Below are positions 7,966-36,469 of a stretch of 39,609 bases of DNA, in pieces. Numbering within the stretch: the stretch's first letter is position 1; the number at the start of each line of letters is the position of its first letter. The position numbers and the translations under genes are program-made. This DNA comes from Burkholderiales bacterium (GTDB taxonomy: Bacteria; Pseudomonadota; Gammaproteobacteria; Burkholderiales; Burkholderiaceae_C). Below the pieces are notes generated by a model that saw only the letters and a list, made by a program, of their open reading frames with translations, was not told where the DNA came from and made no database searches. The stretch spans positions 1 through 39,609 of the forward strand of contig JAGWLR010000026.1 in assembly GCA_028864885.1 (NCBI GenBank). Reading direction: 5' to 3'.

Positions 7966-8014
7966 TTGGAAAACTAGGCTTAATATTCATGCATCTTTCC
8001 GGTCCACGTTGCGC

Positions 8015-13574: not shown

Positions 13575-13584
13575 ACCTAAAAAT

Positions 13585-13710
13585 TTATCCGTATATGTTG
13601 ATCTTCTCGGGCACGTGCCGGAAAGCGACGAAACTGAGCTTGAGCTTTTCGTAGCGCACGAGTAGTTTGCCTTCCTCTTTGTCGTGCCTTCTGGTCACAA
13701 TTCCGCCCAT
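13585..13710 (-). pseudogene. IS5-type transposase C-terminal remnant
   Basis: A 41-codon minus-strand frame ends at TAA 13585-13587. Its residues GKLLVRYEKLKLSFVAFRH match the C-terminal signature of IS5/IS427-group transposases (usually RRLxVRYEK followed by a hydrophobic helix). No catalytic part remains upstream because the divergent glycosyltransferase begins at 13709. It is probably the stump of an old insertion deleted together with neighbouring DNA. The call rests on about 15 residues, so it stays tentative. Confidence 0.4.
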
Positions 13711-14794: not shown

Positions 14795-14804
14795 GCAAGC
14801 CGGT

Positions 14805-15236: not shown

Positions 15237-15259
15237 GGTCTTTATCGACCTGATCACCG

Positions 15260-15706: not shown

Positions 15707-15733
15707 CGTTGACCGCATCCCCCGATCGGCCCA

Positions 15734-16201: not shown

Positions 16202-16226
16202 GAAAATCTCCTTCAGAGAGTTGCCA

Positions 16227-19200: not shown

Positions 19201-19331
19201 TTGTTCAAGTCCGGAAAGACATCCACCGGCATCTGGCGCACGGTCCACAAACCGTAAAACACCAGCAACAGTGCCACGCCCAGCACAATCAGGCGCTGCT
19301 TCAAGCTCGCATGGATGAGATGATCAAACAC
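16227..19331 (-). CDS. czcA: Heavy-metal RND efflux pump, CzcA family
   Basis: 1034 residues, the standard size of HME-RND pumps. TM1 (about 12-32) precedes QMPVDVFPDLNKPTVTLMTEAGGMAPEEVE, a CzcA/CusA-family hallmark. TM4 contains GELVDDAVVGVENVLRRL with Asp404-Asp405, resembling the HME3-like branch rather than the classic CzcA VDGAVV or CusA VDAAIV forms. The cation is therefore uncertain, but the whole operon is czc-like. It exports metal ions from periplasm or cytoplasm with proton antiport, joined to the adaptor (8 bp upstream) and the outer-membrane factor. The symbol denotes family, not proven substrate. Confidence 0.85.
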   Translation of the reverse strand: MFDHLIHASLKQRLIVLGVALLLVFYGLWTVRQMPVDVFPDLNKPTVTLMTEAGGMAPEEVEQLVSVPLESSLNGMPGVSRVRSVSGVGLSVTQVEFDWGTDLYRNRQQVSERLNLVREQLPPGVVPQLGPISSIMGEILLIALPADPQKASPMQVREYADWVIRPRLLTIPGVAQVIPIGGEVRQYRVEIKPDQLQALGLDREVIQAALKDFGSNTSGGFLQDNGREYLIRQIGRTARLVDLQNLVVAVKAGQPILLKQVASVLEAPATKRGDASYNAHPAVILSVQKQPDADSVKVTREVEQAMAELTRNRPAGVEAPRFLFKQADFIERSVSNVEEALRDGAILVAVVLFLFLLNVRTTLISLTAIPLSLLVTALVFHYLGMSINTMTLGGLAIAIGELVDDAVVGVENVLRRLQLNRQSATPQPVMEVIAKATLEVRSAIVYATVIIVLVFVPLFVLPGIEGRLFTPLGWAYIVSILASMIVSITVTPVLAYYLLPQLPSLQHGDSPLVRWLKQLDTRLLQWSFSRARWLLGGAVLMVAVAAASLWWLPRSFLPPFNEGTLTISLMLNPGTSLEESNRIGTMAEQIIASVPEVTQVGRRTGRAELDEHAEGVHSSELDVDLKPSDRSREAIVADLRSRLAVLPAWVNVGQPISHRLDHILSGVRAQIALKIYGDDLDTLRGLAGDLQGRLSHVPGVTDLQIEKQVLIPQIKIRIDYDAAARLGVAPGALLRSLQEEIEGEKVTQIIDGNRRFDLVVRLPDADRGLERLQHLLVETPTGRVPLSQVATVDDADGPNQIVRENARRRIVVSANTDGRDMAQVIAGIRSELHKTPLPQGYFTSLEGQFQAQEQATRLMSVLAGVSLLLIFMVLYSRYRSIVFTTIIMGNIPLALVGSVVALWLSGQPLSVAALVGFITLTGIATRNGILKISHYINLCAHEGETFGTAMIVRGSLERLTPVLMTALVAAFALVPLLWSAAAPGKEILHPVAVVIFGGLVSSTLLDTVLTPLMFWLWGRAPLERLLQEHGEQSF

Positions 19332-19339
19332 GGCTCACC

Positions 19340-20494
19340 TCAGCGGATTTGCGTCAGCAAGCTGGCTCCGCGTGACACCACGCGATCGCCCTCGTGCAGA
19401 CCAGACGTCACCACCACCTGCGTGGCATCCAGGGGTTCGAACCGAATCACTTGAGGACGGAAGCGCTCAGCGTCGGCATGCACCCACACCATGGCCTCAC
19501 CGGAAGCTGTCTTGCCCAACGCCTCACGCGGCAATGCCCAGCCCTGGACGGATTCGGCCGTCGTGGCGGTCACCTTCACGCTTTGGCCCACGGCCAGGGG
19601 CACAGCGGGTGAGATCACCTTGAATCGCACCGGCATGGCCTGTTCACGCAACTGCGCGCCCGTGCCTTGCCATTGCAACTGCACCACGCCACCCGGCACT
19701 GCCGCACTGGCCCGCGACAAGCTGCCAGCCCATCGCGTGTCGTACAACAAGGCCTCGATGACCAATCGCGCTGGATCGACTACTTCGAACAAGGTGTCCT
19801 TGCTGTCGACCACCTGCCCTAACTCGACTGAAGAAGCCACCACGACGCCGTCTACCGGGGCCCGCAAGGCCTCGGGCGCACGCAAACCATCGCTCAAAGC
19901 TGCACGCCGCTGGCGCAAGGCGTCTCGTTCCACTCGCGCCGATTCGATGTCCTTGCGCGCAATGGCGCCTTCGAGCTGTTCGTAACGCTGCACCCGCGCG
20001 TTGGCCAGGGCCAGCTGCGCATCGATGTCGGCCAAAGCGGACTGCTGGTTGCCACGATCCAGATTCGTCACGCTCGGCTGCAAATAGGCCAGGATCTGTC
20101 CTTTCTTGACGCGCTGCCCCAGCGCCGGCAAACCCTGCGGGCCCGCTTCGATGCGCCCCGCCTGACTGGCCTGCACTCGCCCACCGGCATTCGGGTCAGG
20201 GACCACTCGGCCATTCAGTTCAATCGACCGGGGGTGCGCTTGTTTCTGAGGCCTGACGGTGCGAATCTGCAGGCGATGCTGTACCGGCTTGGGCACCCAC
20301 AGGCTGCCGTCAGCCAGACGTGTCGGACGCGAATCACCGCCCACTGACGGCATCGACACCGCAGCTTTGGACTCTGCTTCGTCATGCGGCTCGTCACCAT
20401 GGGCCCATGCCACCGGGCTACCCACTCCGCACAGCCCCACCACAAAGGCGAAGGTGAGCCGTTGGCGTAGATTCTTGAAGCAATGCCTTGTCAT
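19340..20494 (-). CDS. czcB: Periplasmic adaptor of heavy-metal RND efflux, CzcB family
   Basis: 384 residues. The signal peptide (FAFVVGLCGVGSPVAWA) is followed by an acidic, His-bearing start HGDEPHDEAE. A lipoyl domain comes next, split by an alpha-hairpin (NQQSALADIDAQLALANARV onward) and closed by LRAPVDGVVVASSVELGQVV, then a beta-barrel and a membrane-proximal domain ending VSRGASLLTQIR. The text ELNGRVVPDPNAGGRVQAS is typical of CzcB-like adaptors. The start at 20494 overlaps the previous gene (ATGA); an upstream in-frame extension of 36 codons would run through that gene and was rejected. Confidence 0.85.
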   Translation of the reverse strand: MTRHCFKNLRQRLTFAFVVGLCGVGSPVAWAHGDEPHDEAESKAAVSMPSVGGDSRPTRLADGSLWVPKPVQHRLQIRTVRPQKQAHPRSIELNGRVVPDPNAGGRVQASQAGRIEAGPQGLPALGQRVKKGQILAYLQPSVTNLDRGNQQSALADIDAQLALANARVQRYEQLEGAIARKDIESARVERDALRQRRAALSDGLRAPEALRAPVDGVVVASSVELGQVVDSKDTLFEVVDPARLVIEALLYDTRWAGSLSRASAAVPGGVVQLQWQGTGAQLREQAMPVRFKVISPAVPLAVGQSVKVTATTAESVQGWALPREALGKTASGEAMVWVHADAERFRPQVIRFEPLDATQVVVTSGLHEGDRVVSRGASLLTQIR

Positions 20495-21051
20495 GCCTGT
20501 GCCTCCTCGCGCGGCTGACGACGCATGCGCCCCCCCGCCACCAGGCCCACCACGATCACGCCCAATGCCGTCAGCTTGGCCCAGGTGGGGGTGCGATGCC
20601 ACACGCCATTTGAAGTGCCGGAAGTGCCGCTGGCGGCCTGTGGCACCACCAAGGCCGCATCCAACAGATCGGCCCCGGCATCCGACTCGACCGTGATGGT
20701 CAAGGCATGACGCCCGGGATGGGCCAAGGCCCCAGCCGGCATCCCGTACACCCCCTCGCCTTGGGCCACGCCCTCCGCCTTGAAGCCGTCCGACTCGATC
20801 TCGATGTGCGCGCCCGACACGGGCTCGTTGCTGTCGGCTCGATCCAGATACACCGTCAACTCCGACGCGCCCAGCACCGCCACCAGCTCGAAATCATCTG
20901 ACTGGGCCACGGCTCGCGGCTGAACGGGCTGCGACAACACGGGCGCTGGCGCCTCGTGATCGTGGTCTTCGCCCCCATGCGCCCACACCGGGGTCGCCAC
21001 GACCAGGCCGCTCAGCCCCCACCCCCACAGTTGAACCTTCCACCTGTTCAA
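20491..21051 (-). CDS. Membrane-anchored His-rich exported protein in the efflux operon
   Basis: 186 residues. The signal peptide (LSGLVVATPVWA) leads into the metal-ligand-rich start HGGEDHDHE. A beta-sandwich-like segment of about 100 residues follows (FELVAVLGASELTVYLDRAD, VSGAHIEIESDGFKAEG, YGMPAGALAHPGRHALTITV), then a C-terminal membrane helix about 160-176 (LTALGVIVVGLVAGG) and a short basic tail. So it is probably held in the inner membrane with an Ig-like domain in the periplasm. It overlaps the outer-membrane-factor gene and czcB by ATGA, which argues for a stoichiometric role in the complex or in metal delivery. No named family is recognised. Confidence 0.7.
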   Translation of the reverse strand: MNRWKVQLWGWGLSGLVVATPVWAHGGEDHDHEAPAPVLSQPVQPRAVAQSDDFELVAVLGASELTVYLDRADSNEPVSGAHIEIESDGFKAEGVAQGEGVYGMPAGALAHPGRHALTITVESDAGADLLDAALVVPQAASGTSGTSNGVWHRTPTWAKLTALGVIVVGLVAGGRMRRQPREEAQA

Positions 21052-22301
21052 GGCAACACTCCTTGCGCCTGCAACAGGCGCGACACGGCCAACTCCAGGG
21101 CCACTTGCTGCTGTTTCACTGCCACGTCGGCTTCACGTTGTAGCGTCCGCGCTCGCAACAGCGAGGGCAAATCTGCTTCGCCCAGATCAAAGGCCCGCTG
21201 GGCCAGACGCCCGTTGTCCTCGCTCAGGCTTTGGCGCGTTTGGGCCAAGGCCAGTTGCTGCTGCGCCAACTGCCACGCCTGGTAGGCTTGGACGTACTCT
21301 TGCTGCACCTGACGTTGGATCAGGGCTTGCTCGGCTTCAGCCTGATTCAGTTCGGCCCGCACCTCGGCCCCGTCCTGGCGCGAGCGAGCGTCAGAGGCGA
21401 ACGGCAACGTCACCTTCACCCCCACCGCCTGGTGATAGGGCTCGAAAGCATCCGCTCGCTCGTTGGTCAAGCGCAGGGCCACCTCCGGGGCATCCCGTCG
21501 GCTGGCTTGCACCACCGCCAAGCGGCTCTGTGCCCAGTTCACGGTGGCCTGTGCCTGCAGCAGCAAGGGGTGGCTTGGCCCATCCCATGTCGGTGAGGGG
21601 GAAGACGTCAGCAACTCGGGGGACAGCACGGCAGGGGCCACCTCAGCGGTCAAAGCACGGAACTGCGCTTCAGCTTCTTGCTTCGCCTGCTCCGCCGCGA
21701 TCAGATCAGACTGAGCCGACAGCACCTCCACCTGTGCCAGGTTGGCATCCACCCGGGCCAGATCCCCTTTCTGGAACCGGGCCTGGACGGTGCTGGCCAA
21801 CGCCCGCGCAGATTCCAGACGGCTGCGAGCCAGCGCTTGGCTCTCACGTGCCAGCGCCACCGCCCACCAGCGTTGCCGAAGCTGCCCGGCCAGTTGCCAG
21901 CGCAACGCGACCGCACGCGCGGCTGTCAGATCCAGACGGCGCTGGGCCTCATCCTGGCGGGCGGTGCGCTGCGCCGGCAGCCAGATGGGGGAACTGAGCT
22001 CCACCTCCCACTCTCGACGGCCTTGATTCTGATTCAAACGGTCATTGCGCTGGCTCACCGACACCGCACCGGGGCCCGGCGTCCATCCATGGGCCAGATC
22101 CTGGGCAGCCTGGGCTTGTTCCTCTCGCTGACGCAAAGCCGCGGCTTGGGGATCGTGTGCCCAAGCCGCCTCCAGGGCAGAGCCCAGCCCTCCCGGCGCG
22201 GCTGCGGCGCAGGGCCCCCAGGCGGCCAGCAACAGGGCACCCCAGCCAACCCACCGAGGCCAAACCAAACACAAGCGAACGAACGGGCTGGACAATGACA
22301 T
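21048..22301 (-). CDS. czcC: Outer-membrane factor of heavy-metal RND efflux, CzcC family
   Basis: About 417 residues. A signal peptide (GALLLAAWGPCAAAA) precedes two OEP repeats: LEAAWAHDPQAAALRQREEQ with GGRREWE-like strand text, and a second repeat with long Gln/Ala helices ending ALELAVSRLLQAQG. CzcC-type TolC proteins provide the outer-membrane channel for metal RND pumps. Three ATGs are possible (22334, 22322, 22301); the one at 22301 (MSLSSPFVRL) was chosen because the two upstream ATGs fall near or in the regulatory dyad at 22337-22372. It is the first gene of the operon. Confidence 0.82.
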   Translation of the reverse strand: MSLSSPFVRLCLVWPRWVGWGALLLAAWGPCAAAAPGGLGSALEAAWAHDPQAAALRQREEQAQAAQDLAHGWTPGPGAVSVSQRNDRLNQNQGRREWEVELSSPIWLPAQRTARQDEAQRRLDLTAARAVALRWQLAGQLRQRWWAVALARESQALARSRLESARALASTVQARFQKGDLARVDANLAQVEVLSAQSDLIAAEQAKQEAEAQFRALTAEVAPAVLSPELLTSSPSPTWDGPSHPLLLQAQATVNWAQSRLAVVQASRRDAPEVALRLTNERADAFEPYHQAVGVKVTLPFASDARSRQDGAEVRAELNQAEAEQALIQRQVQQEYVQAYQAWQLAQQQLALAQTRQSLSEDNGRLAQRAFDLGEADLPSLLRARTLQREADVAVKQQQVALELAVSRLLQAQGVLP

Positions 22302-22336
22302 GGGTTCATCTTGCACCGCCATGCCCAACCGCAACC

Positions 22337-22372
22337 TGACCGGAACATGACAATTTCGTCATGTTCCGGTCA
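22337..22372. promoter_or_regulatory. CopR/CusR/CzcR-type response-regulator box (15-bp perfect dyad)
   Basis: TGACCGGAACATGAC at 22337-22351 and GTCATGTTCCGGTCA at 22358-22372 are perfectly complementary, with a 6-bp centre AATTTC. The inner part TGACAATTTCGTCA differs by one base from the CopR/CusR core TGACAA-N2-TTGTCA. It lies between the divergent efflux operon and the czcR-like gene, so one site can serve both promoters. Binding by the neighbouring regulator is inferred. Confidence 0.75.
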
Positions 22373-22443
22373 TGCCCTAGCCAGCTTCCCACCTGTAAAG
22401 TGGGGACCGTTGACCACTCCACTCGCGCCGCTGTGCCATCCAC

Positions 22444-23127
22444 ATGAAGTTGCTCGTCGTCGAAGATGAAAGCAAAACCGGGGACTACCTGCGCCAAGGC
22501 TTGCAGGAAGCCGGCTTCGTGGTTGATCTGGCCCGAACCGGGCTGGACGGTCATCATCTGTCGCAAACCGAGGCCTATGACCTGATCCTGCTGGATGTGA
22601 TGCTGCCGGACGTGGATGGCTGGCGCATCATCCAGTCCCTGCGTGAAGCCGGCAAGCAAACCCCAGTGCTGTTCCTGACCGCCCGCGACAGCATCGAAGA
22701 CCGGGTCAAGGGGCTGGAACTGGGGGCCGACGACTACCTGGTCAAGCCCTTTGCCTTTGCCGAGCTGCTGGCGCGTGTGCGCACCTTGTTGCGCCGCGGC
22801 ACCCAGCCCGTGCACGCCGATCGCCTGCAGGTAGCCGATTTGGTTCTGGACTTGAGCAAGCGTCGCGCCACGCGCGCGGGCGTGCGGGTCAACCTCACCG
22901 GCAAGGAATTCGCGCTGCTGGAGTTACTGGTGCGCCGACAAGGCGAAGTGCTGCCCCGCTCCCTGATCGCCTCCCAGGTGTGGGACATGAACTTCGACAG
23001 CGACACCAACGTCATCGACGTCGCCATCCGGCGCCTGCGTGCCAAGATCGATGACCCGCATGAGGTCAAACTGATCCACACCATCCGCGGCATGGGCTAC
23101 AGCGTGGAGAACCCACTTGAAAGTTGA
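22444..23127 (+). CDS. czcR: Heavy-metal response regulator, OmpR/PhoB family (CzcR/CusR type)
   Basis: 227 residues. The receiver domain 1-115 has the acidic pair in VVEDES, phospho-acceptor Asp51 ([14 protein letters not shown]) and Lys101 (LVKPF). The C-terminal winged helix (about 130-225) has [20 protein letters not shown] and [16 protein letters not shown], close to CusR/CzcR. It should bind the dyad upstream and activate both the divergent efflux operon and itself in response to metal sensed by the kinase. It overlaps the kinase gene by 11 nt. The symbol reflects family and context. Confidence 0.88.
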
Positions 23128-24535
23128 ACCTCTGCCACGCCGGCCCATCTCGCTGACTTTGCGGCTGACCCTGTCGATTGCCGGCGTCATCATCCTGATT
23201 TTCTTGGGCCTGGGCTGGACCATCGAGCGCTCGCTGATGCGCCACTTTGCTCAGCAAGACGCCGAAGAGCTGGAGGTCGTGGCGCATTCGATTCAACATG
23301 TCATCAGCCACACGCCCACCCCGCTCACCCCAGCCCAATGGCAAAACCGCCTGAGCGCCGCCGTTCAGGGACACCACGGCATGTTCTACCGTGTGAGCGA
23401 CGCCAGCGGGCAGGTGTTGTTTCAGATGGAAGGCCCCAACCTCGCGCAACAACAGGCGCAGCACCCCGCCACCGATCAAGTTCATGCCGATCACCTGATC
23501 GAATGGGCCGAAGGTGGAGAACACTACCGGGGTGCGGTGCTCAGCCTCCCGCCGTCTGGCACGATGTCCGGACCGTATGGCGTTGTGGTCGCCACCGTGA
23601 TGAGCTTTCACGAGCACTTCCTGGGGGTCTACCGGCGAACCATCTGGGCCGCTACCTCGCTGGCCGCGGTGGTCGCCATCCTGGCCACCTGGCTGGCGGT
23701 CTACCGTGGTCACGCGCCGCTGCGCGACATGAGCCAACGCATCCGCGGCATCACGGCCAACCAACTGCACGTTCGACTCGACCCCCGAGAAGTACCGGTC
23801 GAACTTGAAGCCTTGACCGATTCCTTCAACACCATGCTGGAGCGGGTCGAACAAGATTTCCGCAAGCTCACCAACTTCTCAGCCGACATTGCCCATGAAT
23901 TGCGCACCCCGGTGACCAACCTGATCACCCAGACGCAGGTGCTGCTGACCAAGCCACGCGATGCCAATGCCTACCGCGAAGCGCTGTATGCCGGCCTGGA
24001 AGAGTACGAACGCATGGCCAAAATGATCGGCGACATGCTCTACCTGGCCCAAACCGATCACCATTTGATCAAGCCCGAACGCAGTGCCGTCGATCTGCGC
24101 AAAGAGATTCAGGATCTGTTTGAGTACTTTGAACCGTGGGCCGAAGAGCGATCGGTGTCGCTGCGCTGTGAAGGGCCGGATCTGACAGTTCAGGGAGATC
24201 GCCTGATGTTGCGCCGCGCGTTCAGCAACCTGCTGAGCAATGCCATCCGGTACACCCCAGACGGTCAAACTGTGACGGTCAACCTGAGCGCTGCCGAAGA
24301 GCATTTGAGCGTCAGATTCAGCAACCCCGGCCCCACCATCCCTGAGGAACACCTGCCACACCTGTTCGATCGCTTCTACCGCGCAGACCCATCACGCCAG
24401 CGCAACGGGGACGGAGCTGGCTTGGGATTGGCGATCGTCAAGGCGATTGTCGAAGCCCATGGTGGGCATATCTATGCAACGTCGTGGGAAGAGATCACTG
24501 AGTTCGAAGTCATCCTGCCGCATCCGACAAGTTGA
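23117..24535 (+). CDS. czcS: Heavy-metal sensor histidine kinase (CzcS/CusS type)
   Basis: 472 residues. TM1 about 16-34 and TM2 about 175-196 flank a periplasmic sensor of about 140 residues containing several His ([23 protein letters not shown]), plausible metal ligands. HAMP follows, then HisKA with His260 ([15 protein letters not shown]) and HATPase with [21 protein letters not shown] and [20 protein letters not shown]. The start is TTG at 23117, overlapping the regulator gene by 11 nt; the first internal ATG would remove TM1. It phosphorylates the adjacent regulator when periplasmic metal is high. Confidence 0.88.
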
Positions 24536-27454: not shown

Positions 27455-29179
27455 ATGTCTAAGTTTTCTCACTTGGTTTGGGGTACGGCGCTGGGCATCA
27501 GCCTCGGTGCCCACGCCCAACCCGTCCCCACCGATCCCTCTGGTGGCTGCCCGATCCCTGCAGCCACGGTGGCCAGCTTCTTTGAAAGTGGCGCGGTGTC
27601 ACTCAACGGTGTCGTCAAGCCCGCCGACAGCACAGTGGTCCCCGTCCCGAATTGCGGCTTCTTTGAATGGACCGAGCAGATGTTCTTGTGGCTGACCTCG
27701 CCAGCCCCCGCCCATTACGGTGGCGGCAGCCGGGTCATGTTCTCGCCGCAATTCTTCACGGTCACCCCCGAAGACGCCACCGGCCGTCGCACCTTCTTGC
27801 CCAACTCATCGGGCCTGCCCATCAACATGTTCTTGCGTGCGATGGAAACCGGCCCCCATGGCTTGCCCATCGTGATGTCGCGCACCGGGCAGGTGGTCGA
27901 AGTTCAAAAAGAACGGCGAGGGATGAAGCCGCCGGTCCTGCGCCTGCCCACTGGCAAGACCTTGCCGATCTCACGCATCAAGCAGGTCCGCATCAGCCCT
28001 GAAGGCCGGCTCGACTTCATCGGGGCCCGCGGCATCCAGATTAAGCCACGCATGCTGAAGCTGACACCGGCGGTGCGGCAACGCATCCTGATGGCGCCCG
28101 ATCATGCGGTTCGCATGGTGCCCATTGCCGCTTTCAAGTCTGCCATCCAGGCTCGCAAGATCATCATCAACAAGATTCCGATCTTCCTCGATCCAGCGGG
28201 CAACGTGATCGACGTGGAGCCAGGTCAAGCGGACAGCGGGGTGCTGATTTCGCAGGGCGGCTCACTGATCTACTACATCACCTCAGTCAACGATGTGTTT
28301 GCCTACCACCGCTCGATGCAGCCAGCGGGCGTGATCCCTTTCAACACGACCCTGAAGTTCCCGATGACCCTGGCCGACGTGAACCCTGTGGTGGCATTTG
28401 CCGCCAGCAAGGGCCACACCATCCAGGATCCCCAAGCCCTGGCCATCGAAACCAAATCGAGCTGGATCGAGGCCAGCGCCGTGTCGAACCCGGCGGACTA
28501 CATCCAGGTCAGTGCCGTGGTCCCCACCTTCAACAAAAGTGATCCCAACAACTGGGTTCCGAATGGACAGGCCACGGTCAAGCTGGTGATGGTGGGGCTG
28601 CACGTGGTGGGGTCGACCAATGGACACGGCGAGATGGTGTGGGGCACCTTTGAGCACCTGGGCAATGCTCCCAGCGCCACCTATGCCTACAACTCGACCA
28701 GCGGCCTCAAGACCGTGCCGCAAAACACCCATGGAACTTGGTTGTTCACGCCGGATGGCTCTGCAGGCCCCTTCAACACCACCGGCAACAGTTGGACGGG
28801 CACGGCCATCACCGGCACCCCGGTGGCCCCGGCAGCAATCTTGCGTGCCAAGCCTTGGGGCACCAATGACGGGGGTAATCCGGCCAATGCGGCGGGCTTG
28901 AACACCCAAGTGATTTCAGCTAATGCCAGCGTGATCTCGCAACTCGACCCGGCCGATGTGCGGCGGCTGTACTTTCAGTTGGGTACCACCTGGACCATTG
29001 GTGGTGCGGCACCGAACGGAGGCAATGAAGTGGGCACGAACCATTTGGCCAACGCCACGATGGAAACCTTTGCCCAAGGCACCACGCCTTCAGACCCGAG
29101 CTCGAACTGCTTTGCCTGTCATGGCACCAACACCGTGGTCGTCAGCCACGTTTATCCGGCCCTGAAGCCTTTGCCTTGA
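27455..29179 (+). CDS. Large exported protein with one C-terminal haem c site
   Basis: 574 residues. The signal peptide is about 1-22 (LVWGTALGISLGAHA). Most of the chain lacks a recognised domain: Cys31 and Cys67 may form a disulphide, a basic insert lies at about 150-215 (QKERRGMKPPVLRLPTGK, ARGIQIKPRMLKLTP) and beta-rich text follows (SGVLISQGGSLIYYITSVND). The only haem-attachment motif is C552-F-A-C555-H556, 19 residues from the end, with His565 as a possible axial ligand. AGGAGAG lies 4 nt before the ATG. The role is probably periplasmic electron transfer or catalysis; the family is known to me only as hypothetical cytochrome-like proteins. Confidence 0.7.
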   Translation: MSKFSHLVWGTALGISLGAHAQPVPTDPSGGCPIPAATVASFFESGAVSLNGVVKPADSTVVPVPNCGFFEWTEQMFLWLTSPAPAHYGGGSRVMFSPQFFTVTPEDATGRRTFLPNSSGLPINMFLRAMETGPHGLPIVMSRTGQVVEVQKERRGMKPPVLRLPTGKTLPISRIKQVRISPEGRLDFIGARGIQIKPRMLKLTPAVRQRILMAPDHAVRMVPIAAFKSAIQARKIIINKIPIFLDPAGNVIDVEPGQADSGVLISQGGSLIYYITSVNDVFAYHRSMQPAGVIPFNTTLKFPMTLADVNPVVAFAASKGHTIQDPQALAIETKSSWIEASAVSNPADYIQVSAVVPTFNKSDPNNWVPNGQATVKLVMVGLHVVGSTNGHGEMVWGTFEHLGNAPSATYAYNSTSGLKTVPQNTHGTWLFTPDGSAGPFNTTGNSWTGTAITGTPVAPAAILRAKPWGTNDGGNPANAAGLNTQVISANASVISQLDPADVRRLYFQLGTTWTIGGAAPNGGNEVGTNHLANATMETFAQGTTPSDPSSNCFACHGTNTVVVSHVYPALKPLP

Positions 29180-29795
29180 CAGGGCGGGGCTTCTTGCCTG
29201 CTTTGGCATCGGTCAAGGTCAAACTCTGATTGACCTGATCCAGCCAAAGCAGGGTCTCCATCTGCGCCAGAAACCGCCTGAGGTAATCCGGCGAGAGATA
29301 TCTCATCAAGGTGAGAGACCTCAACATCAAGCGATGCGAATTCAAAGGCCCTGCCTGCTCCGGCGCCCGACCCATCGCGCGATCCAGTTGCTGCTGCACG
29401 GCAATCTTCGACCATGCTTCGCTGAAGCGCCGCACGCTCTTCATCTGCGCCGGGTCAACTGCGTCCACCTCCAAACCTGATGGGGCGTCCTGCGTCCTCA
29501 ATGACTCGAGATAGGTCGTCAGCGAACGCAAAGGCGATTCGCTCGCCGCCTTGGATGGCAGGGCCAGATTCGTGTCGACACCGATGTGGGCTGTTTGGGT
29601 TTGTACCCGCTGCGCCAGCGCCTGCAGGCCCTCTTGCAAACGGGCATGCAGCAACCGCTGCACGGGCTCGGGCTGCGAAGGCAAACGCCGCGCCAGGGCC
29701 TGCAGTTGTTGCCAACGCATCGGGTCAAGCCGATCAGCCCCCACTTGCTGAAGGGAAGCCAGCGTCAACGGGGCATCGGGGGTGACCTCACTCAT
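29142..29795 (-). CDS. DUF2894 protein, fourth gene of the motor-like operon
   Basis: 217 residues, largely helical, no signal or membrane segment. It matches DUF2894: PMRWQQLQALARRLPSQPEP, VQRLLHARLQEGL near the N terminus; ESPLRSLTTYLESLR in the middle; RRFSEAWSKIAVQQQLDRAM and HRLMLRSLTLMRYLSPDYLR toward the end; then a basic Lys/Pro tail (KKPRPVKAKASG). The function is unknown. It overlaps the OmpA-like gene by 8 nt, so it is made together with the channel pair and is presumably a cytoplasmic component. Its 3' end overlaps the convergent haem-protein gene by 38 bp. Confidence 0.85.
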   Translation of the reverse strand: MSEVTPDAPLTLASLQQVGADRLDPMRWQQLQALARRLPSQPEPVQRLLHARLQEGLQALAQRVQTQTAHIGVDTNLALPSKAASESPLRSLTTYLESLRTQDAPSGLEVDAVDPAQMKSVRRFSEAWSKIAVQQQLDRAMGRAPEQAGPLNSHRLMLRSLTLMRYLSPDYLRRFLAQMETLLWLDQVNQSLTLTDAKAGKKPRPVKAKASGPDKRG

Positions 29796-30438
29796 GCGGC
29801 GCTGCCTGATTGTTGGTGGTGCGGGGCACGGGGGCCATCTCGACTCGGCGATTGAGCGCCCGGCCCTTCTCGTCGTCGTTCGATGCCACGGGTTGCTGCG
29901 AACCGAACGCGGCGGCGAACACCTGCGAGGCCGGCATGCCTTCTTCGATCAAAGCCCGCGTCACGGTCAGGGCCCGCTCGGCCGATAGCTCCAGGTTGTC
30001 GGCAAATCGGGTGCCATTGCGCAAGCGTTTGTCGTCAGTGAAGCCGCTGACCATCAACATCTCATTGTGATCCCCCAGGTACACCCGCAATGGCGGAATC
30101 AAGCTTTTCAAGAGCTGGCGACCATCGCTGCGCAACTCATCCGATCCGACATCGAACAGCACGCTGCCGCTGATGCCGATGCGGCCGTTCGTCAAGGTGA
30201 TGCGGCCCGATGCAAGCGGGCCAGCCAGTGCATGCTCCAAAGCGATCCGGCGTTGTTCTTCGATGTGGCGTTTTTCGACTTCTTCCTTCAGGCTCGACAT
30301 CAGGTCGATCTGCACCACCAGCACACCCACCAGGATCAGCACGAACGCGCCCAGCAGCCCGGACATCAGGTCGCCGAAAACAGCCCAGACCGGCGCCGTC
30401 TGCTCGACGGCATCGTCCCGATCGTCGAGCTCCATCAT
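29788..30438 (-). CDS. MotB/ZorB-like stator protein with OmpA domain
   Basis: 216 residues. A single helix about 24-46 begins FGDLMSGLLGAFVLILVGVL; Asp23 sits where MotB and ZorB carry the proton-binding Asp. A short helical linker follows, then an OmpA C-like peptidoglycan-binding domain (about 80-205): SGSVLFDVGSDELRSDG, VSGFTDDKR, NLELSAERALTVTRALIEEG, AFGSQQPVASNDDEKGRALN and RRVEM. The start is MM at 30438, overlapping the DUF802 stop (ATGA). With the DUF802 channel it should form an ion-driven complex fixed to the cell wall. Confidence 0.85.
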   Translation of the reverse strand: MMELDDRDDAVEQTAPVWAVFGDLMSGLLGAFVLILVGVLVVQIDLMSSLKEEVEKRHIEEQRRIALEHALAGPLASGRITLTNGRIGISGSVLFDVGSDELRSDGRQLLKSLIPPLRVYLGDHNEMLMVSGFTDDKRLRNGTRFADNLELSAERALTVTRALIEEGMPASQVFAAAFGSQQPVASNDDEKGRALNRRVEMAPVPRTTNNQAAPHE

Positions 30439-32453
30439 GCAGCGCTCCGATCCAGCTCAGTGGCCTGCTTGGCGTGCAAGTGGCGCAGGTCTTCCAAGAT
30501 GCCCTGCTGCGAGGCGATGCTGAGGTCGATCACCTCGCGGGCCTGGGCTACGTAGTAAGCCAGCTGCTCGTCACTGCGCGACAGGCTCTGCTGAATCGCG
30601 CCATCGATGCGCTGCAGGCTATCGATGAGTTTTTCGTTGGTGGCCTGGAACTGCCGCACGCCCTGGCCAAACGCTTCGCCCAAGCTGGCCAATTCGACGG
30701 CGCTGGCCGACACATGGGCGGCCACATCGTCGACCTTGTCGGTCTGGCCCCCCAAGGCTTCGCTGAACCGATGGGCAGCCTGCTCCATCACGCTGGAGGC
30801 CGAGGCCACCAAGGTCGACACCGACGCGCGCTGCTCGTCCGCCGCTTGCTGGATCGACTGCATCAAGGCCCGCAGCGTTTCCATCATCGAGGTCCGCTCT
30901 TCCAGCGCCAGGTTGTCACGCTCGGTGAGGCGGGTCATCTCTTGCCGCAACTGACCAATCACCTCGGCAGCGGCCTGTGGCACTTCGGTGGCCGTTTGCA
31001 GCAGGCGTGTCATCGGGGCCTCAAGCGCATTACCCAAGGTAGCCAGGTGCGTGGCCACCGCTGCCTGCAGCTCATCCAGTCGGTCCACCGACGCTTGGCC
31101 ACGCTTCGCCTCTTCGTCGCGCAGAGCCTGCAGCTCGGTACGCCACACATCGGCCAGTTGGTTCATGCGCTGGCCTTGCGCCTCGATCCAGGCCGATTCT
31201 GAATCCATCCGGGCACGCACCATGGCCTCGGATTGAGACACGAGCTGGGCCACATCCTTGAGCGTGTCGCTCACATGCGCACTGGCGCGCTCCGTGATCT
31301 GGCCCGCGCTGGTCTCCAGGCTTTCGCACACGGCCTTCTGCTGATCCAACACCTGGGCGCCCACGCGCTGCCATTCATCCACCAGGGTGGATGACAAGGT
31401 GAGCAAGGATTGCGTCCAGGCGGCCAGTTGCTGCTGTAGCGAAGCACCCCACGTGTCGTTGACCGTGCGCACGGCACCGTCCAATTGCGTAGCAAGCCCT
31501 TGCAACTGTGCCTGGGTGGTGTCCAACAAGCGCTGATGGGTAAGCTGCGCATGCTGCGCCACTTGCTCCATGGCCGAGGCCACCACAGGTTGAATGCTCT
31601 CACCAGCCGCACGTGCACCGGCCTGCAAGCTGTCATGCAGCACCCGACCCACGGCCTGAGCCAATTCGCGATAAGCGCCCGATGCATCCTGATGGAATTG
31701 CTGTTGCTGGGTCAGCAAATGCTGATTCAACTGCTCGGCCCGGCGATCCATGCCGTCCATCATGGATTGCAGGCGATCAACGATGATGGGCATGGTTTGC
31801 GCCTGCACCTGCAAGGCCTTGAAGGTTTCCTGGCGCTGATGCACTTGCGAAAAGCGCTGAAACACCGTGGCAATGCGGGCATCCAGCTGGCGCACCACAT
31901 CGAGCCGCTCACGTCGGCTGATGGCCGCCATCAGGCCCAGCATGGCCGACGTGGCCACCCCGGCCACCGAAGTGCCAAACGACAAGCCCAAGCCCTTGAT
32001 GGGCGCTGACAGGGCGCCACGGATGGCTTGCAAATCCGTCGAGCCTTCGAGCGCGAACACGGCGCCCTTGAAGGTGGCCACCATGCCCAAAAATGTACCC
32101 AGCATGCCCAGCATCACCAGCAAACCCACGAGGTAAGGCGTCAAGGCCGGGCCCGGCAAGCCCACGCGCTCACCTTCGATGCGCAGACGCACCGATTGCT
32201 GCAAGACCGGAGGCACCTGGCTCAACCAAGCCCCCAAGTCTTCCACGGGGGTCAAGGCCTGCGACACCGCCGCAGCCAGATTCGAGGTCGCTTCGCGGAA
32301 CCGCTTCAGCTCCAAGGCCCCGATCAGGTACACCCCTGCAATCACCAGCGACATCGTCAAAGCCATCCAGCTGTAGCCAATGAAGCCCACCGCCACCCAA
32401 GCCACGGCCGTCAGGCCCAGGGCGAAAATCGCCGCCATCACAAATCTGTTCAT
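30435..32453 (-). CDS. DUF802 protein: MotA/ZorA-like channel with a long helical tail
   Basis: 672 residues. N-terminal helices lie at about 5-25 and 29-48. A MotA/TolQ/ExbB-type pair follows: TM3 about 106-127 with LVMLGMLGTFLGMVATFKG and TM4 about 153-178 with GLGLSFGTSVAGVATSAML. From about residue 185 to the end the chain is Gln/Glu/Ala-rich and predicted helical, about 480 residues in the cytoplasm, with DUF802 text near the C terminus. ZorA of Zorya defence has the same order (channel, then intracellular tail). It starts 4 bp after the DUF3348 stop and overlaps the OmpA-like gene by ATGA. Confidence 0.85.
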   Translation of the reverse strand: MNRFVMAAIFALGLTAVAWVAVGFIGYSWMALTMSLVIAGVYLIGALELKRFREATSNLAAAVSQALTPVEDLGAWLSQVPPVLQQSVRLRIEGERVGLPGPALTPYLVGLLVMLGMLGTFLGMVATFKGAVFALEGSTDLQAIRGALSAPIKGLGLSFGTSVAGVATSAMLGLMAAISRRERLDVVRQLDARIATVFQRFSQVHQRQETFKALQVQAQTMPIIVDRLQSMMDGMDRRAEQLNQHLLTQQQQFHQDASGAYRELAQAVGRVLHDSLQAGARAAGESIQPVVASAMEQVAQHAQLTHQRLLDTTQAQLQGLATQLDGAVRTVNDTWGASLQQQLAAWTQSLLTLSSTLVDEWQRVGAQVLDQQKAVCESLETSAGQITERASAHVSDTLKDVAQLVSQSEAMVRARMDSESAWIEAQGQRMNQLADVWRTELQALRDEEAKRGQASVDRLDELQAAVATHLATLGNALEAPMTRLLQTATEVPQAAAEVIGQLRQEMTRLTERDNLALEERTSMMETLRALMQSIQQAADEQRASVSTLVASASSVMEQAAHRFSEALGGQTDKVDDVAAHVSASAVELASLGEAFGQGVRQFQATNEKLIDSLQRIDGAIQQSLSRSDEQLAYYVAQAREVIDLSIASQQGILEDLRHLHAKQATELDRSAA

Positions 32454-32457
32454 TGCT

Positions 32458-33219
32458 TTACTCTGATCTCGCTTGGATCTCGTTTTGGTAGGCCTCGATC
32501 AAGCCCACCACGGGCAAGAGGCGGGCCGTCATGTCGGCCGTCAGGATGTCGCGCCAGTCTTGTTGGAACCCATGCAACCAGGCTCCGGGCTGGCGCCAGG
32601 TCTTGGGGTCGTCTTCCGCCTGCGTTGCCTTCAACCACGCCTTGTGCGCCTGACGTCGGCTTTCAAATCGCCGCTCCAGATAGACCGGGACGGTGGCCAG
32701 CAACTTTTGCTCGCGCGCGCCCAGCATCTGCTCCATCACCGCATCCATCGCAGCCAATTGCCGCAACGCCGACGAGCCGCGGGACAGCACTTGCCGTACC
32801 TGGCCCCGCAACTGGCTGATCTTCAACTCAAATCGACGCTGATGATCCAGATAAGCCTGGAAATAGTTGCCGTAATCCACATCGTCGACGTTTTGCACCT
32901 CGACCGGCAGACGATCGCGCAGGCGCTTGTCCACTGCGGTACGCGGCTCGGGCAGGGTGAAGCCAGCCGTCAATGCTTCGCGGGCTCGCTGATAGAACTC
33001 GTCCAGCGCCAGGGGCAAATCGCGCGACGGCGCGCCCCCCTGGCGGGCAAAGGCCTGGATCGATTGCAAGGCGGCCTCCAACCGAACCGTGTCAAACGCC
33101 GTCAGCCAACCGCTCAGGCGCTCAGCAAAGTCCTGCCGGGGCGTTTCCACGTCCAGGCTGGCCCATTCGCCTAGCAGGCGAACAAGCCGAGGGTTGCTGA
33201 GGGTGCGGTGTGCATGCAT
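32458..33219 (-). CDS. DUF3348 protein, first gene of the motor-like operon
   Basis: 253 residues, helical and cytoplasmic by composition. Text fits DUF3348: NPRLVRLLGEWASLDVETP, FAERLSGWLTAFDTVRLEAA, YFQAYLDHQRRFELKISQLR, AMDAVMEQMLGAREQKLLAT and a conserved ending with WLHGFQQDWRDILTADMTAR and LLPVVGLIEAYQNE. The function is unknown. I recall this family almost only beside DUF802 and OmpA-like genes in Beta- and some Gammaproteobacteria, so it probably binds the channel complex or its tail. It leads the operon; the promoter must lie in 33220-33290. Confidence 0.85.
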   Translation of the reverse strand: MHAHRTLSNPRLVRLLGEWASLDVETPRQDFAERLSGWLTAFDTVRLEAALQSIQAFARQGGAPSRDLPLALDEFYQRAREALTAGFTLPEPRTAVDKRLRDRLPVEVQNVDDVDYGNYFQAYLDHQRRFELKISQLRGQVRQVLSRGSSALRQLAAMDAVMEQMLGAREQKLLATVPVYLERRFESRRQAHKAWLKATQAEDDPKTWRQPGAWLHGFQQDWRDILTADMTARLLPVVGLIEAYQNEIQARSE

Positions 33220-33292: not shown

Positions 33293-33316
33293 AAAACCGT
33301 CCAAGTGGACGGTTTT
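33293..33316 (-). terminator. Rho-independent terminator
   Basis: AAAACCGTCC 33293-33302 and GGACGGTTTT 33307-33316 form a perfect 10-bp stem with a 4-nt loop. Read on the minus strand, the hairpin is followed by T residues (TTTTTTGC), the classic pattern for the end of the PEP-CTERM gene that stops at 33355. The plus-strand copy also ends in TTTT and could work in both directions. It insulates the motor-like operon from the upstream gene. Confidence 0.85.
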
Positions 33317-34265: not shown

Positions 34266-35741
34266 TTACAAGGGCAAGGCAAACATGAATGCGGCCCCTT
34301 GCCTGTCTTGCTGATCCAGAAACTCCACCACACCATCGTGCAGCTGCACGATCTTTTGAACGATCAGCAGGCCAAGCCCCCCACGCTGGGCGGGCGGGTT
34401 GCCGCTCAACACAGATGGACGGTGGAACAGATCCTGGCGCCGCTCAGCGGGAATGCCCTCGCCTTCATCCTCCACGGTCACGGTCACCTGTCCCGAGCGA
34501 GTTGCCACCGACACCCTCACCATGCCTTGGTTCGGACTGTGACGCAAAGCGTTGTCCAACAAATTGGTCAACACCCGCTCCATCAGCCCCAAATCGGCCT
34601 CGACGCTGGGCACGGTCTCTGGCAAGTCGGCCACCAAGCGCACCTGCTTTTCCTGTGCGACCAGTTCAAACTTCTGGAACACGTCTTGGATGAGATCGGT
34701 GAGCAGAAAGCGCTCTTTCTCCAGCCGAATGCCACCGTATTCGAGTCGGGCCAATTCAAACAACTCTTGCGCCAGTCGCCCCACCTTACGGCTTTGCGCG
34801 AGCGCCCTGGCCAAGTAGCGTTGCCGCTCTTCAGCTGACAATTGCTGATCTTTCACAGCCAAGGTTTCCAGGTAGCCGTGCAGCGCCATCAAGGGCGTCC
34901 GCAAATCGTGAGAGATATTGGCCACCACCTCGCGGCGTTGCTCGTCTTTTTTCAACAAAGCCTGCCACTGCAGCACCAGCCGGGCAGACATGCTTTGGAA
35001 GGCTGAACGCAAGCACCCCACTTCATCGGCCTCAGGGTGGTGCGATTCGACCTGTTGCAAGGCGTCAGACAGGGCCAGTTGTTCCACGCCTTTGCGTTCG
35101 ACTTCTTGTACCGTAGCCGTCAAATCGCGCAAAGGCCGTGTCACCCAACGAAAGGCCGCCACCCCGGCAAACACGCCCCCCATCAAAACCAGAGTCAATG
35201 CGACCAGGGTAGACGTCCACGCGCGATGCGCAACGTTGTTTGCAGCCAGGGCCGCATGGTCTTCGCCCAGCAAAACCACATACACATAGCCTCGGGTGAC
35301 GCCCCCTTGCGTCAAAGGCGCAACGCTGAACACGTTAGGCTGTTCGGGGTGGCGTGGGTCGTCGCCCAAGATGGGCAAGGGTGCCCCCCGCAGATATTCG
35401 CGAACCGGCTGAAGGCTCACATGCGTCAATTTGACCCGTCCCGGTGGCGCCAGATGCGCAGCCACCCGCCCATCCATATCCAGCAAATACACCTCGATGC
35501 TGGGATTGACCACCATCAGCATGTGCAGCAAATCCTTCAACCCCTCAGGACTCAACCCCTTCTGTCCAATCAGTTCGCTGTTGGCTGCAATGTGTTGCGC
35601 CAATTTGTACGACAAGCGCTGGGTCAGGCTTTGCTCGGTCTGCTCGCTCTGCGCAAACTGTATCCAGGTCAACACGCCGCAGCAGGTCACCAACAGGGCG
35701 GCAAACACCGCAATCAGCCGCTGCGTGAGGTTCCACTTCAT
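34266..35741 (-). CDS. Sensor histidine kinase of a second two-component system
   Basis: 491 residues. TM1 about 9-27 and TM2 about 176-197 enclose a periplasmic domain of about 145 residues with beta-rich PAS/dCache-like text (NPSIEVYLLDMDGRVAAHL). HAMP follows (RWVTRPLRDL), then HisKA with His278 (VVANISHDLRTPLMALHGYL) and HATPase (MERVLTNLLDNALRHSP, VEDEGEGIP, QRGGLGLLIVQKIVQLHDG). The start at 35741 overlaps the regulator stop (ATGA). The signal sensed is unknown. The layout resembles kinases of envelope-stress or metal-response pairs, but no target dyad is seen nearby. Confidence 0.87.
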   Translation of the reverse strand: MKWNLTQRLIAVFAALLVTCCGVLTWIQFAQSEQTEQSLTQRLSYKLAQHIAANSELIGQKGLSPEGLKDLLHMLMVVNPSIEVYLLDMDGRVAAHLAPPGRVKLTHVSLQPVREYLRGAPLPILGDDPRHPEQPNVFSVAPLTQGGVTRGYVYVVLLGEDHAALAANNVAHRAWTSTLVALTLVLMGGVFAGVAAFRWVTRPLRDLTATVQEVERKGVEQLALSDALQQVESHHPEADEVGCLRSAFQSMSARLVLQWQALLKKDEQRREVVANISHDLRTPLMALHGYLETLAVKDQQLSAEERQRYLARALAQSRKVGRLAQELFELARLEYGGIRLEKERFLLTDLIQDVFQKFELVAQEKQVRLVADLPETVPSVEADLGLMERVLTNLLDNALRHSPNQGMVRVSVATRSGQVTVTVEDEGEGIPAERRQDLFHRPSVLSGNPPAQRGGLGLLIVQKIVQLHDGVVEFLDQQDRQGAAFMFALPL

Positions 35742-36469
35742 GCCGCCCCACCCTCTGTGGCCCACTGAACGGGAACCAGCTTGTAACCCACGCCCCACAC
35801 GGTCAGGATCCGACTGGGTTTGGACGGATCGTCCTCGACCTTGGATCGCAGCCTGTTGATGTGTGTGTTGACCGTGTGTTCGTAACCATCGTGCTCATAG
35901 CCCCACACCTGATTGAGCAGATCCAATCTGGAAAACACCTTGCCAGGATGCCGGGCAAAAAAATGCAGCAGGTCGAACTCTCGAGGGGTTAACTCCAGCA
36001 CTTTGCGCTGCAACGAGGCTTCTCGGGCCACCGCATCGATCCGCAGGTCTCCGAGCGAGATCAACGAAGCTTCCCCTTGCCGGGGTTTTTCCAACGCCTC
36101 GACGCGGCGTAGCAAAGCTCGAACCCGGGCCACCAACTCGAGCACAGAGAAGGGCTTGGACAGATAGTCGTCCGCCCCCAATTCCAGGCCCAGGATGCGA
36201 TGCAGTTCGCTGGATCGCGCGCTGATCATGATGATGGGCATGTAGTTGGCCAGGCTTCTGGCGTGCCGGCACACTGCCTGCCCATCCACTTCGGGCAGCA
36301 TCAAATCGAGCACCATCGCATCCCAGTGGGATTGATCCAGCAAACGCAGGGCCGACGCGCCATCCAACACGTGCGTCACCGCATAGCCTTCGTCAGACAG
36401 ATGCAGGCGAACGATCTCGCCGATATGGGGATCGTCCTCCACCAACAAAACTTTCTTTTGCCGCTCCAT
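35738..36469 (-). CDS. OmpR/PhoB-family response regulator
   Basis: 243 residues. Receiver domain: acidic pair in LLVEDDPHIGE, phospho-acceptor Asp55 (AMVLDLMLPEVDG) and the Lys in LSKPF. The winged-helix domain has LTPREFDLLHFFARHPGKVFSR and HTVNTHINRLRSKVEDDP, ending GVGYKLVPVQ. The recognition helix text (YEHTVNTHINRLRSK) is common to PhoB-like proteins. It leads a two-gene unit with the kinase. Targets are unknown; the adjacent PEP-CTERM gene is a possibility only because of closeness. Confidence 0.88.
   Translation of the reverse strand: MERQKKVLLVEDDPHIGEIVRLHLSDEGYAVTHVLDGASALRLLDQSHWDAMVLDLMLPEVDGQAVCRHARSLANYMPIIMISARSSELHRILGLELGADDYLSKPFSVLELVARVRALLRRVEALEKPRQGEASLISLGDLRIDAVAREASLQRKVLELTPREFDLLHFFARHPGKVFSRLDLLNQVWGYEHDGYEHTVNTHINRLRSKVEDDPSKPSRILTVWGVGYKLVPVQWATEGGAA

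What the first reader, a model, noticed from the sequence alone, without database searches (positions are those of the whole stretch)
29142..33219. MotAB/ZorAB-like motor with two unknown partners (DUF3348-DUF802-OmpA-DUF2894)
Four coupled minus-strand genes encode a helical protein (DUF3348), a four-helix channel of MotA/TolQ/ExbB type with a cytoplasmic tail of about 480 residues (DUF802), a single-helix stator protein with an intramembrane Asp (Asp23, FGDLMSG) and an OmpA peptidoglycan-binding domain, and a second helical protein (DUF2894). Channel plus long tail plus OmpA partner is the layout of ZorAB in Zorya anti-phage defence, but ZorC, ZorD and ZorE are absent and the two DUF proteins take their place. 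The set could be a wall-anchored, ion-driven machine that passes force or a signal along the tail, either for defence or for another surface-sensing job. Gene overlaps of 3-8 nt argue for a single complex.
Basis: partly seen in the sequence, partly recalled or inferred. Interest (0 to 1): 0.85.

Follow-up and report, generated by a model that had tools for sequence, protein, structure and literature searches.

The report
Zorya type III phage-defence motor
Four neighbouring bacterial genes match Zorya type III, a known anti-phage defence built like a tiny ion-driven motor, and comparing relatives shows that its long inner rod changes length mostly in whole helical turns and ends in a nearly invariant tip.

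Summary
In detail: four minus-strand genes (29142-33219) encode DUF3348, a MotA/ExbB-type channel with a long tail, a MotB-like OmpA protein (Asp23) and DUF2894. All four match PADLOC's Zorya type III models. So: a new member of a known kind.

Observed here: (1) the genes are inseparable (same 34 of 120 family genomes) and share a history that differs from the species'; (2) no fifth neighbour recurs in more than 9 of 34 loci; (3) the ZorA tail varies over twofold in length but ends in a near-invariant tip; (4) channel-to-tip distance is quantised at 3.645 residues (63 distinct lengths, Rayleigh 0.61, 0 of 2000 randomisations), unlike four control lengths; (5) DUF2894 has a basic tail.

Likely mechanism: a wall-anchored motor acting through a phase-locked rod on tip-docked partners without a recognisable nuclease. 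Docking and effector action are inferred.

The parts
32458..33219 (-). DUF3348 protein (ZorG in PADLOC-DB; ZorF in the text of PMC8565338 and PMC11890865), 253 aa, all-alpha
   Evidence: PF11828 E 8.5e-58; ZorG3 E 3.8e-61; AF2 pLDDT 84.7, pTM 0.75, nine helices
30435..32453 (-). ZorA (type III; 'DUF802 protein' in relatives), 672 aa: MotA/ExbB/TolQ-type channel plus long helical cytoplasmic tail
   Evidence: ZorA3 E 1.6e-245; profile hit to type I ZorA 8vvn_C E 9.9e-6; hhalign to type I ZorA prob 94.9 of 100
31905..32144 (-). ZorA residues 104-183: most conserved channel segment (LVGLLVMLGMLGTFLGMV ... KGLGLSFGTSVAGVATSAMLGL)
   Evidence: invariant columns in 17 aligned relatives; block means of the top-residue fraction 0.79-0.94 over residues 101-180 in 109 sequences
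30498..30590 (-). ZorA residues 622-652: near-invariant tail tip (QSLSRSDEQLAYYVAQAREVIDLSIASQQGI)
   Evidence: mean top-residue fraction 0.86 over residues 621-640 in 109 sequences; tip motif in 34 of 34 and 74 of 76 ZorAs; in 15 loci from further genera one search's narrower pattern matched 14, the 15th (L311) having QAK for QAR; absent in 4 of 4 ZorA-like proteins not of type III
29788..30438 (-). ZorB: one membrane helix with Asp23 and an OmpA/MotB peptidoglycan-binding domain, 216 aa
   Evidence: ZorB3 E 2.1e-105; PF00691 E 6.5e-16; phmmer hits to MotB (best 6ysl_A E 1.4e-12) and, weaker, to 8vvn_B (E 6.9e-4), the MotB-like chain of the type I entry
29142..29795 (-). DUF2894 protein (ZorF in PADLOC-DB; ZorG in the paper text), 217 aa, all-alpha with basic C-terminal tail
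   Evidence: PF11445 E 6.3e-44; ZorF3 E 5.4e-56; AF2 pLDDT 76.8, pTM 0.40; basic tail in 98% of 106 sequences
33293..33316 (-). 10-pair terminator-like hairpin just upstream of the operon, between it and the PEP-CTERM gene
   Evidence: 3 terminator-like sites found in the region, 3.2 expected, so weak on its own

Best explanation
The locus is a complete Zorya type III anti-phage system (DUF3348, ZorA, ZorB, DUF2894). ZorA and ZorB form a MotAB-like ion-driven motor in the inner membrane, anchored to peptidoglycan by the OmpA domain of ZorB, with ion passage through Asp23. Infection that disturbs the wall is thought to engage ZorB and let ions through, turning the ZorA ring (published model for types I and II, carried over by homology). 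In type III the ring carries a continuous, nearly straight helical rod whose length evolves mostly in whole helical turns, so the tip keeps its rotational register to the motor. I propose that the near-invariant tip docks the DUF3348/DUF2894 pair, which takes the place of the nuclease modules of types I and II and stops infection without a recognisable nuclease of its own, probably by acting on nucleic acid through the basic tail of DUF2894. Shown here by sequence: membership, the inseparable four-gene unit, the quantised rod length, the near-invariant tip, the basic tail. Taken from the literature: protection by another type III member; motor stoichiometry and the sensing model for types I and II. 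Inferred: rotation in type III, tip docking, the effector action. My confidence is about 0.95 for membership, 0.85 for a defence role of this copy, 0.5 for tip docking and 0.3 for nucleic acid as target; the figure given for this explanation is for the membership-plus-defence core.
For: PADLOC type III models for all four proteins, E 3.8e-61, 1.6e-245, 2.1e-105, 5.4e-56. Homology to type I ZorA by profile. [quoted passage not shown] coli (PMC8565338, passages). DUF3348 and DUF2894 in the same 34 of 120 family genomes and the same 23 of 397 phylum genomes, with four further weak single hits. Gene order in 34 of 34 and 73 of 80 loci. Accessory behaviour: 22 of 42 genomes of the genus have it, at least 5 changes forced on an rpoB tree of 29; in 30 genomes (29 genera) rpoB-tolQ rho 0.764 against rpoB-ZorA 0.22, and 0.59-0.75 among the four operon genes. 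Rod: channel-to-tip distance quantised at 3.645 residues, R 0.608, 0 of 2000; four control lengths R 0.06-0.08 at that period; hydrophobic period 3.655-3.66. Tip motif. Basic DUF2894 tail, median +6 in the last 22 residues, 98% of 106 at +3 or more. In Burkholderia cenocepacia only the first one or two genes of Zorya III changed expression on phage infection (PMC12584637, passage); direction not given there for Zorya III.
Against: The PADLOC type III models describe exactly such genes, so a match shows family, not activity; nothing here tests defence by this copy. No defence-island context: 10 neighbouring window ORFs gave only weak PADLOC hits to generic kinase or response-regulator parts, and no neighbour recurs in more than 9 of 34 loci. 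The system sits on chromosomes or large replicons (the 15 plasmid records listed of 27 are 366 kb or larger) and was not found on phages; a type III Zorya is cited as conserved in at least 90% of genomes of Ralstonia solanacearum (PMC13064858, passages), which would also fit a housekeeping role. rpoB-ZorA agreement is low but not nil (0 of 1000 permutations as high), tolQ-ZorA is 0.323, and fast evolution of the operon genes (median distances 1.03-2.0 against 0.36 and 0.59) may lower such figures. Presence in the genus is clustered on the tree (2-4 of 500 shuffles as low). Docking at the tip is unproven. ZorB also has a mildly basic C-terminus (median +3). The DUF2894 model is of low confidence (pTM 0.40).
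Confidence: 0.85

Rival explanations
1. A vertically kept envelope or surface-sensing machine (housekeeping) that only looks like Zorya; protection seen in E. coli is a by-product of overexpression.
For: No defence island seen around it; chromosomes and large replicons, 20 of 27 plasmid records predicted non-mobilizable; no phage-borne copy found; a type III Zorya listed as highly conserved within R. solanacearum (PMC13064858).
Against: Present in only 34 of 120 sampled genomes of the family and 22 of 42 of the genus; tree unlike the species marker, while the housekeeping relative tolQ follows it (rho 0.764 against 0.22); published plaquing reduction for another member.
Confidence: 0.1
2. Defence acts by ion leak: ZorAB opened on infection dissipates the ion gradient and DUF3348/DUF2894 only regulate the channel (PMC8565338 proposes that ZorF and ZorG regulate ZorAB, and cites the proton-channel idea).
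For: No nuclease-like family or solved-fold match in DUF3348 or DUF2894 and no widely shared fifth gene; proposal read.
Against: Does not by itself explain a long rod with quantised length and a near-invariant tip far from the channel; in types I and II the rod is needed, and ZorE is a nickase effector in type II (PMC11890865, passages).
Confidence: 0.25
3. The tip recruits a host nuclease or nucleoid protein encoded elsewhere, so that type III borrows its effector.
For: No nuclease recognised in the operon and no widely shared neighbour; near-invariant tip looks like a docking site.
Against: Spread over several families and activity in E. coli of a system described as ZorA, ZorB, ZorF and ZorG (PMC8565338) would need a widely conserved host partner.
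Confidence: 0.15
4. The length quantisation reflects only core packing of any long coiled coil, with no mechanical meaning for a motor.
For: Hydrophobic period (3.655-3.66) and length step (3.645) agree, as core packing alone would demand; PMC5344682 (passages) describes phase effects and periodic length rules in other coiled coils.
Against: Packing alone would not fix the tip sequence; but the two readings are not exclusive of each other.
Confidence: 0.5

Closest known systems
Zorya type III (Payne et al. 2021, PMC8565338; PADLOC-DB ZorA3/ZorB3/ZorF3/ZorG3)
   Same: All four genes, their families, and the layout of the zorAB pair flanked by DUF3348 and DUF2894
   Different: Nothing in content; this copy is from a genome of probably the genus Aquabacterium (see full report). 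The quantised rod and the tip motif were not in the passages I read of the two Zorya papers.
Zorya type I (ZorABCD; solved chains 8vvn)
   Same: ZorA channel core and long tail, ZorB with Asp and OmpA domain
   Different: ZorC (EH_Signature) and ZorD (SNF2/Mrr) are replaced by DUF3348/DUF2894, for which hhalign finds no relation to two ZorCs; the tip motif is absent in the two type I ZorAs checked
Zorya type II (ZorABE)
   Same: ZorAB motor
   Different: No ZorE gene beside it; two DUF proteins instead. ZorA2 model match only E 1.2e-4, and NCBIfam ZorA_2 35.4 bits against a cut-off of 100
MotAB / ExbBD / TolQR motors
   Same: Channel core with about four membrane helices and a one-helix partner with an Asp; MotB-type OmpA domain
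   Different: Long rod, no flagellar or Ton/Tol partner in the operon; PF01618 is not reported for this ZorA at E <= 1, and the six tolQ-family matches in the genome do not include it

Membership tests
Zorya type III | ZorA homologue (MotA/ExbB/TolQ channel with long tail) | tested here: met
   ZorA3 E 1.6e-245
Zorya type III | ZorB homologue (MotB-like, OmpA domain, intramembrane Asp) | tested here: met
   ZorB3 E 2.1e-105; PF00691. [FS]-x-D-[LVM]-M found in 33 of 34 and 72 of 75 relatives; the 4 misses come from my start calls, and their upstream codons carry the Asp
Zorya type III | DUF3348 gene beside zorAB | tested here: met
   PF11828 E 8.5e-58, PADLOC E 3.8e-61
Zorya type III | DUF2894 gene beside zorAB | tested here: met
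   PF11445 E 6.3e-44, PADLOC E 5.4e-56
Zorya type III | Anti-phage activity | not testable with these tools
   Published for a Stenotrophomonas nitritireducens system (PMC8565338, passages); nothing known for this copy
Zorya type I | ZorC and ZorD genes beside zorAB | tested here: not met
   No ZorC/ZorD match among the four proteins or 10 neighbouring window ORFs; the rest of the genome was not searched for them
Zorya type II | ZorE (nickase) gene beside zorAB | tested here: not met
   No ZorE match among the four proteins or 10 neighbouring window ORFs; the rest of the genome was not searched for it
Zorya (any type) | Peptidoglycan binding by ZorB and 5:2 ZorA:ZorB assembly | not testable with these tools
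   OmpA domain present; N-x-x-L-S-x-x-R-A motif in 32 of 34 and 72 of 75 relatives, the others having S for A; no complex could be predicted

The most novel reading that the evidence does not exclude
Type III Zorya is a force-transmitting defence machine without a nuclease: a peptidoglycan-anchored ion motor turns a straight, phase-locked five-helix rod whose near-invariant tip holds the DUF3348/DUF2894 pair, and DUF2894 grips nucleic acid through its basic tail, so that infection is stopped by mechanically engaging DNA rather than by cutting it.
Probability: 0.13. Interest if true: 0.85.

Novelty: new member of a known kind. Interest (0 to 1): 0.45.

Why it matters
The locus is one more instance of a published defence type, but type III looks little studied: in the library searched, five papers hold one of four spellings of its name, I read passages of all five, and only PMC8565338 reports a test of protection in them. 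What stops the phage is open, since no nuclease is recognised in the operon. The analysis turns this into direct tests: a near-invariant tip of about 30 residues to mutate, a rod whose length should work mainly in steps of about 3.65 residues, and a basic DUF2894 tail to remove. If rod phase matters for defence, that would argue that Zorya motors transmit rotation or shape change along the rod.

Tried and rejected

Analyses replaced: one search used wrong rpoB frames for some genomes (redone); crashed; one search used wrong tolQ frames (redone); one search crashed at its last step, a mid-rod anchor, after printing the controls used here. Rows dropped: L036 (ZorA frame not intact in the called ORF) and the tail tests; of the 34 family genomes, 32 were given to the rpoB search (G050 and G103 left out) and 30 gave a usable locus; L144 (N run) and L114 (frame broken) lack a readable tip; of 129 loci examined, 111 had both motifs readable and no unknown residue, 18 were dropped. 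Weakness of the controls: lengths of ZorB, DUF3348 and DUF2894 depend on my start calls, and the tip-to-end control has only 18 distinct lengths within 38-67, so it has little power.
Full report
What is there. Four genes on the minus strand, in transcription order DUF3348 (32458-33219), channel protein (30435-32453), OmpA protein (29788-30438) and DUF2894 (29142-29795), are present as described. The junctions are a 4-nt gap, a 4-nt overlap and an 8-nt overlap. A terminator-like hairpin lies between the upstream PEP-CTERM gene and the operon, but such sites are no commoner than chance in the region. The window is contig 14 of a 3.54 Mb draft with one ZorA match. Its genus is probably Aquabacterium: the contig of L160, titled Aquabacterium sp., is 114,255 bases long, as is contig 4 of G031, a genome of the window's genus.

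What it is. PADLOC profiles for Zorya type III match all four proteins: ZorG3 E 3.8e-61 (DUF3348), ZorA3 E 1.6e-245, ZorB3 E 2.1e-105, ZorF3 E 5.4e-56 (DUF2894). The ZorA core profile finds the solved type I ZorA chain (8vvn_C, E 9.9e-6) and aligns with a type I ZorA (L337) at probability 94.9 of 100. ZorB matches MotB structures and, more weakly, 8vvn_B. Payne et al. 2021 (PMC8565338; [quoted passage not shown] coli. Mariano et al. 2025 (PMC11890865; passages read) repeat the definition, and describe for types I and II a ZorA5B2 complex, a pentameric cytoplasmic rod, peptidoglycan binding by ZorB and the need for ZorB D24, which by position corresponds to Asp23 here (my inference). Both papers call DUF3348 ZorF and DUF2894 ZorG; PADLOC-DB labels them the other way round. 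Other papers that name the type: in Burkholderia cenocepacia the first one or two genes of Zorya III changed expression on infection (PMC12584637, passage); it is annotated in a Variovorax (PMC11953036, passage) and listed as highly conserved in Ralstonia solanacearum (PMC13064858, passages).

An inseparable, accessory unit. In 120 genomes of the family, DUF3348 and DUF2894 occur in the same 34 genomes; in 397 genomes of the phylum, in the same 23, apart from one weak DUF3348 hit (E 4e-4) and three weak DUF2894 hits (E 7.3e-5 to 1e-3, one just at the cut-off) in other genomes. All 34 family loci have the order DUF3348-ZorA-ZorB-DUF2894 on one strand; so do 73 of 80 loci from genome contigs, and the 7 exceptions lie at contig ends. 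On plasmids, ZorA and DUF2894 each hit 27 of 72,556 records with the same genus counts. Flanking genes are not widely shared: the best cluster reaches 9 of 34 loci. Within the genus 22 of 42 genomes carry the operon, and on an rpoB tree of 29 genomes presence needs at least 5 changes forced by well-supported branches, although it is clustered (2-4 of 500 shuffles as low). Over 30 genomes from 29 genera, patristic distances of rpoB and tolQ agree (rho 0.764), but rpoB agrees little with ZorA (0.22), ZorB (0.168), DUF3348 (0.175) and DUF2894 (0.095); tolQ gives 0.20-0.34 with them; the four operon genes agree among themselves (0.59-0.75). The low figures are mostly still above permutation, and the operon genes evolve faster, which may lower them. 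The unit is thus inherited together, along a path that differs from the species'. The same comparison inside the genus is uninformative because the tolQ control fails there (0.178).

No nuclease in sight. Beyond their own DUF family, the 50 relatives scanned for each DUF protein give only scattered weak Pfam hits, in at most 2 members each. AlphaFold2 models are all-alpha (DUF3348 pLDDT 84.7; DUF2894 pLDDT 76.8 but pTM 0.40). Foldseek finds nothing at E <= 0.001. hhalign shows no relation to two ZorCs. DUF2894 ends in a basic tail: median net charge +6 in the last 22 residues over 106 distinct sequences, +3 or more in 98%; DUF3348 has -1 and ZorA 0, but ZorB has +3.

The rod. Across 109 ZorA sequences the middle of the tail is poorly conserved, while residues 621-640 of the window protein are as conserved as the channel (mean top-residue fraction 0.86). 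The tip motif R-[SH]-D-[ED]-Q-[LP]-x-Y-Y-V-x-Q-A-[RK]-[ED] is in 34 of 34 family ZorAs and 74 of 76 complete contig ZorAs; the two misses are an N-filled and a frame-broken sequence. In 15 loci from further genera (some in other families), 13 show the commonest form and L311 and L312 a form with substitutions (QAK in L311; RHD and VEQ in L312); the tip is absent from 4 of 4 ZorA-like proteins not of type III. Two of these four lie in type I operons: for L337 ZorC and ZorD are confirmed by Pfam; L338 has a ZorC 31% identical to it and a ZorD-like ORF judged by eye. Without any alignment, the distance from the channel motif to the tip, taken from 111 of 129 loci (109 distinct sequences; 63 distinct lengths, 369-898 residues), is concentrated at one phase of a 3.645-residue period (R 0.608; jittered null mean 0.224 and 0 of 2000 as high in the band 3.55-3.72; 0 of 400 over the range 3.0-4.3). 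Counting each distinct length once reduces, but does not remove, relatedness among sequences. The family set (31 lengths, R 0.614 at 3.64) and the contig set (37 lengths, R 0.805) each show it; they share at least two genomes. Four lengths that should not show it do not: tip to C-end, and total lengths of ZorB, DUF3348 and DUF2894 (R 0.06-0.08 at 3.645); these controls have limits, told under Tried and rejected. The hydrophobic pattern of the tails has nearly the same repeat (mean power 16.9 at 3.66, at most 1.36 in shuffles; 70% of 105 sequences peak within 3.60-3.68); the window protein alone peaks at 3.60. Indels between relatives peak at 4, 7, 11, 15, 18, 22, 25, 29, 33, 36, 40, 44, 51, 54, 58 and 62 residues, i.e. 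near multiples of 3.64, but there are also many of 1-3 residues and a scatter of others, and the list depends on alignment. A repeat close to that of an undistorted alpha helix suggests a nearly straight bundle (general knowledge). Periodic length rules are known for SMC arms (PMC5344682, passages), there with steps of about 100 residues.

How it probably works. By homology the motor is peptidoglycan-anchored and ion-driven; this rests on work on types I and II in the cited paper and is inferred here. What the type III data add is that evolution lets the rod change length but mostly keeps the register between channel and tip, and the tip itself. The simplest reading is a continuous rod that presents the tip, in fixed orientation, to partners that do not vary in kind; the only partners always present in the operon are DUF3348 and DUF2894. 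I therefore propose docking of that pair at the tip, with DUF2894's basic tail acting on nucleic acid. Docking and target are inference; core packing alone could also demand whole-turn changes.

Limits. No assay, no complex model and no whole-genome motif search could be done. Hu et al. (reference 37 in PMC11890865) was not held. Searches for Zorya literature were made, in an open-licence library only; absence of the rod and tip observations from print is not claimed beyond the passages read.

Noticed in passing
PADLOC-DB models vs PMC8565338 / PMC11890865: The names ZorF and ZorG are swapped between the papers (DUF3348 = ZorF, DUF2894 = ZorG) and PADLOC-DB 2.0.0 (DUF3348 = ZorG, DUF2894 = ZorF); PMC8565338 also writes 'zorBC' where zorAB seems meant.
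   Followed up: partly
window 27455-29179 (+): 574-aa ORF without any Pfam match at E <= 1 that has a C-F-A-C-H haem-binding-like motif near its end and overlaps the 3' end of the DUF2894 gene tail-to-tail by 38 nt.
   Followed up: no
window 8009-24535: Two RND-type efflux sets (ACR_tran at 10488-13574 and 16227-19331, each with HlyD and OEP genes) and a CusS-like sensor kinase at 23117-24535.
   Followed up: no
window 34266-36469 (-): Histidine kinase and response regulator just upstream of the PEP-CTERM gene that precedes the operon; weak PADLOC hits there look like generic two-component matches.
   Followed up: partly
L339 (NZ_CP029211.1) 9850-15393: Aquabacterium olei plasmid pTB101 carries the closest plasmid copy, also with a PEP-CTERM gene upstream, but that gene aligns with the window's essentially only in the sorting motif.
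   Followed up: yes
Corynebacterium glutamicum control genome: The DUF2894 Pfam model rings over its cut-off in this control genome; not examined, may be a chance or compositional match.
   Followed up: no
G031, G120, G137 (same genus): An ExbB/TolQ-like gene lies about 8-8.5 kb from the operon in these three genomes, which form one clade on the rpoB tree, so probably shared descent of the site.
   Followed up: no
DUF2894, window protein residues 145-172: A strongly conserved segment P-x-N-A-G-P-L-N-S-H-x-L-V-L-R-S-L-x-L-M ... S-P-D-Y-L in 50 aligned sequences, without a known relative among solved structures by profile; role unknown.
   Followed up: partly
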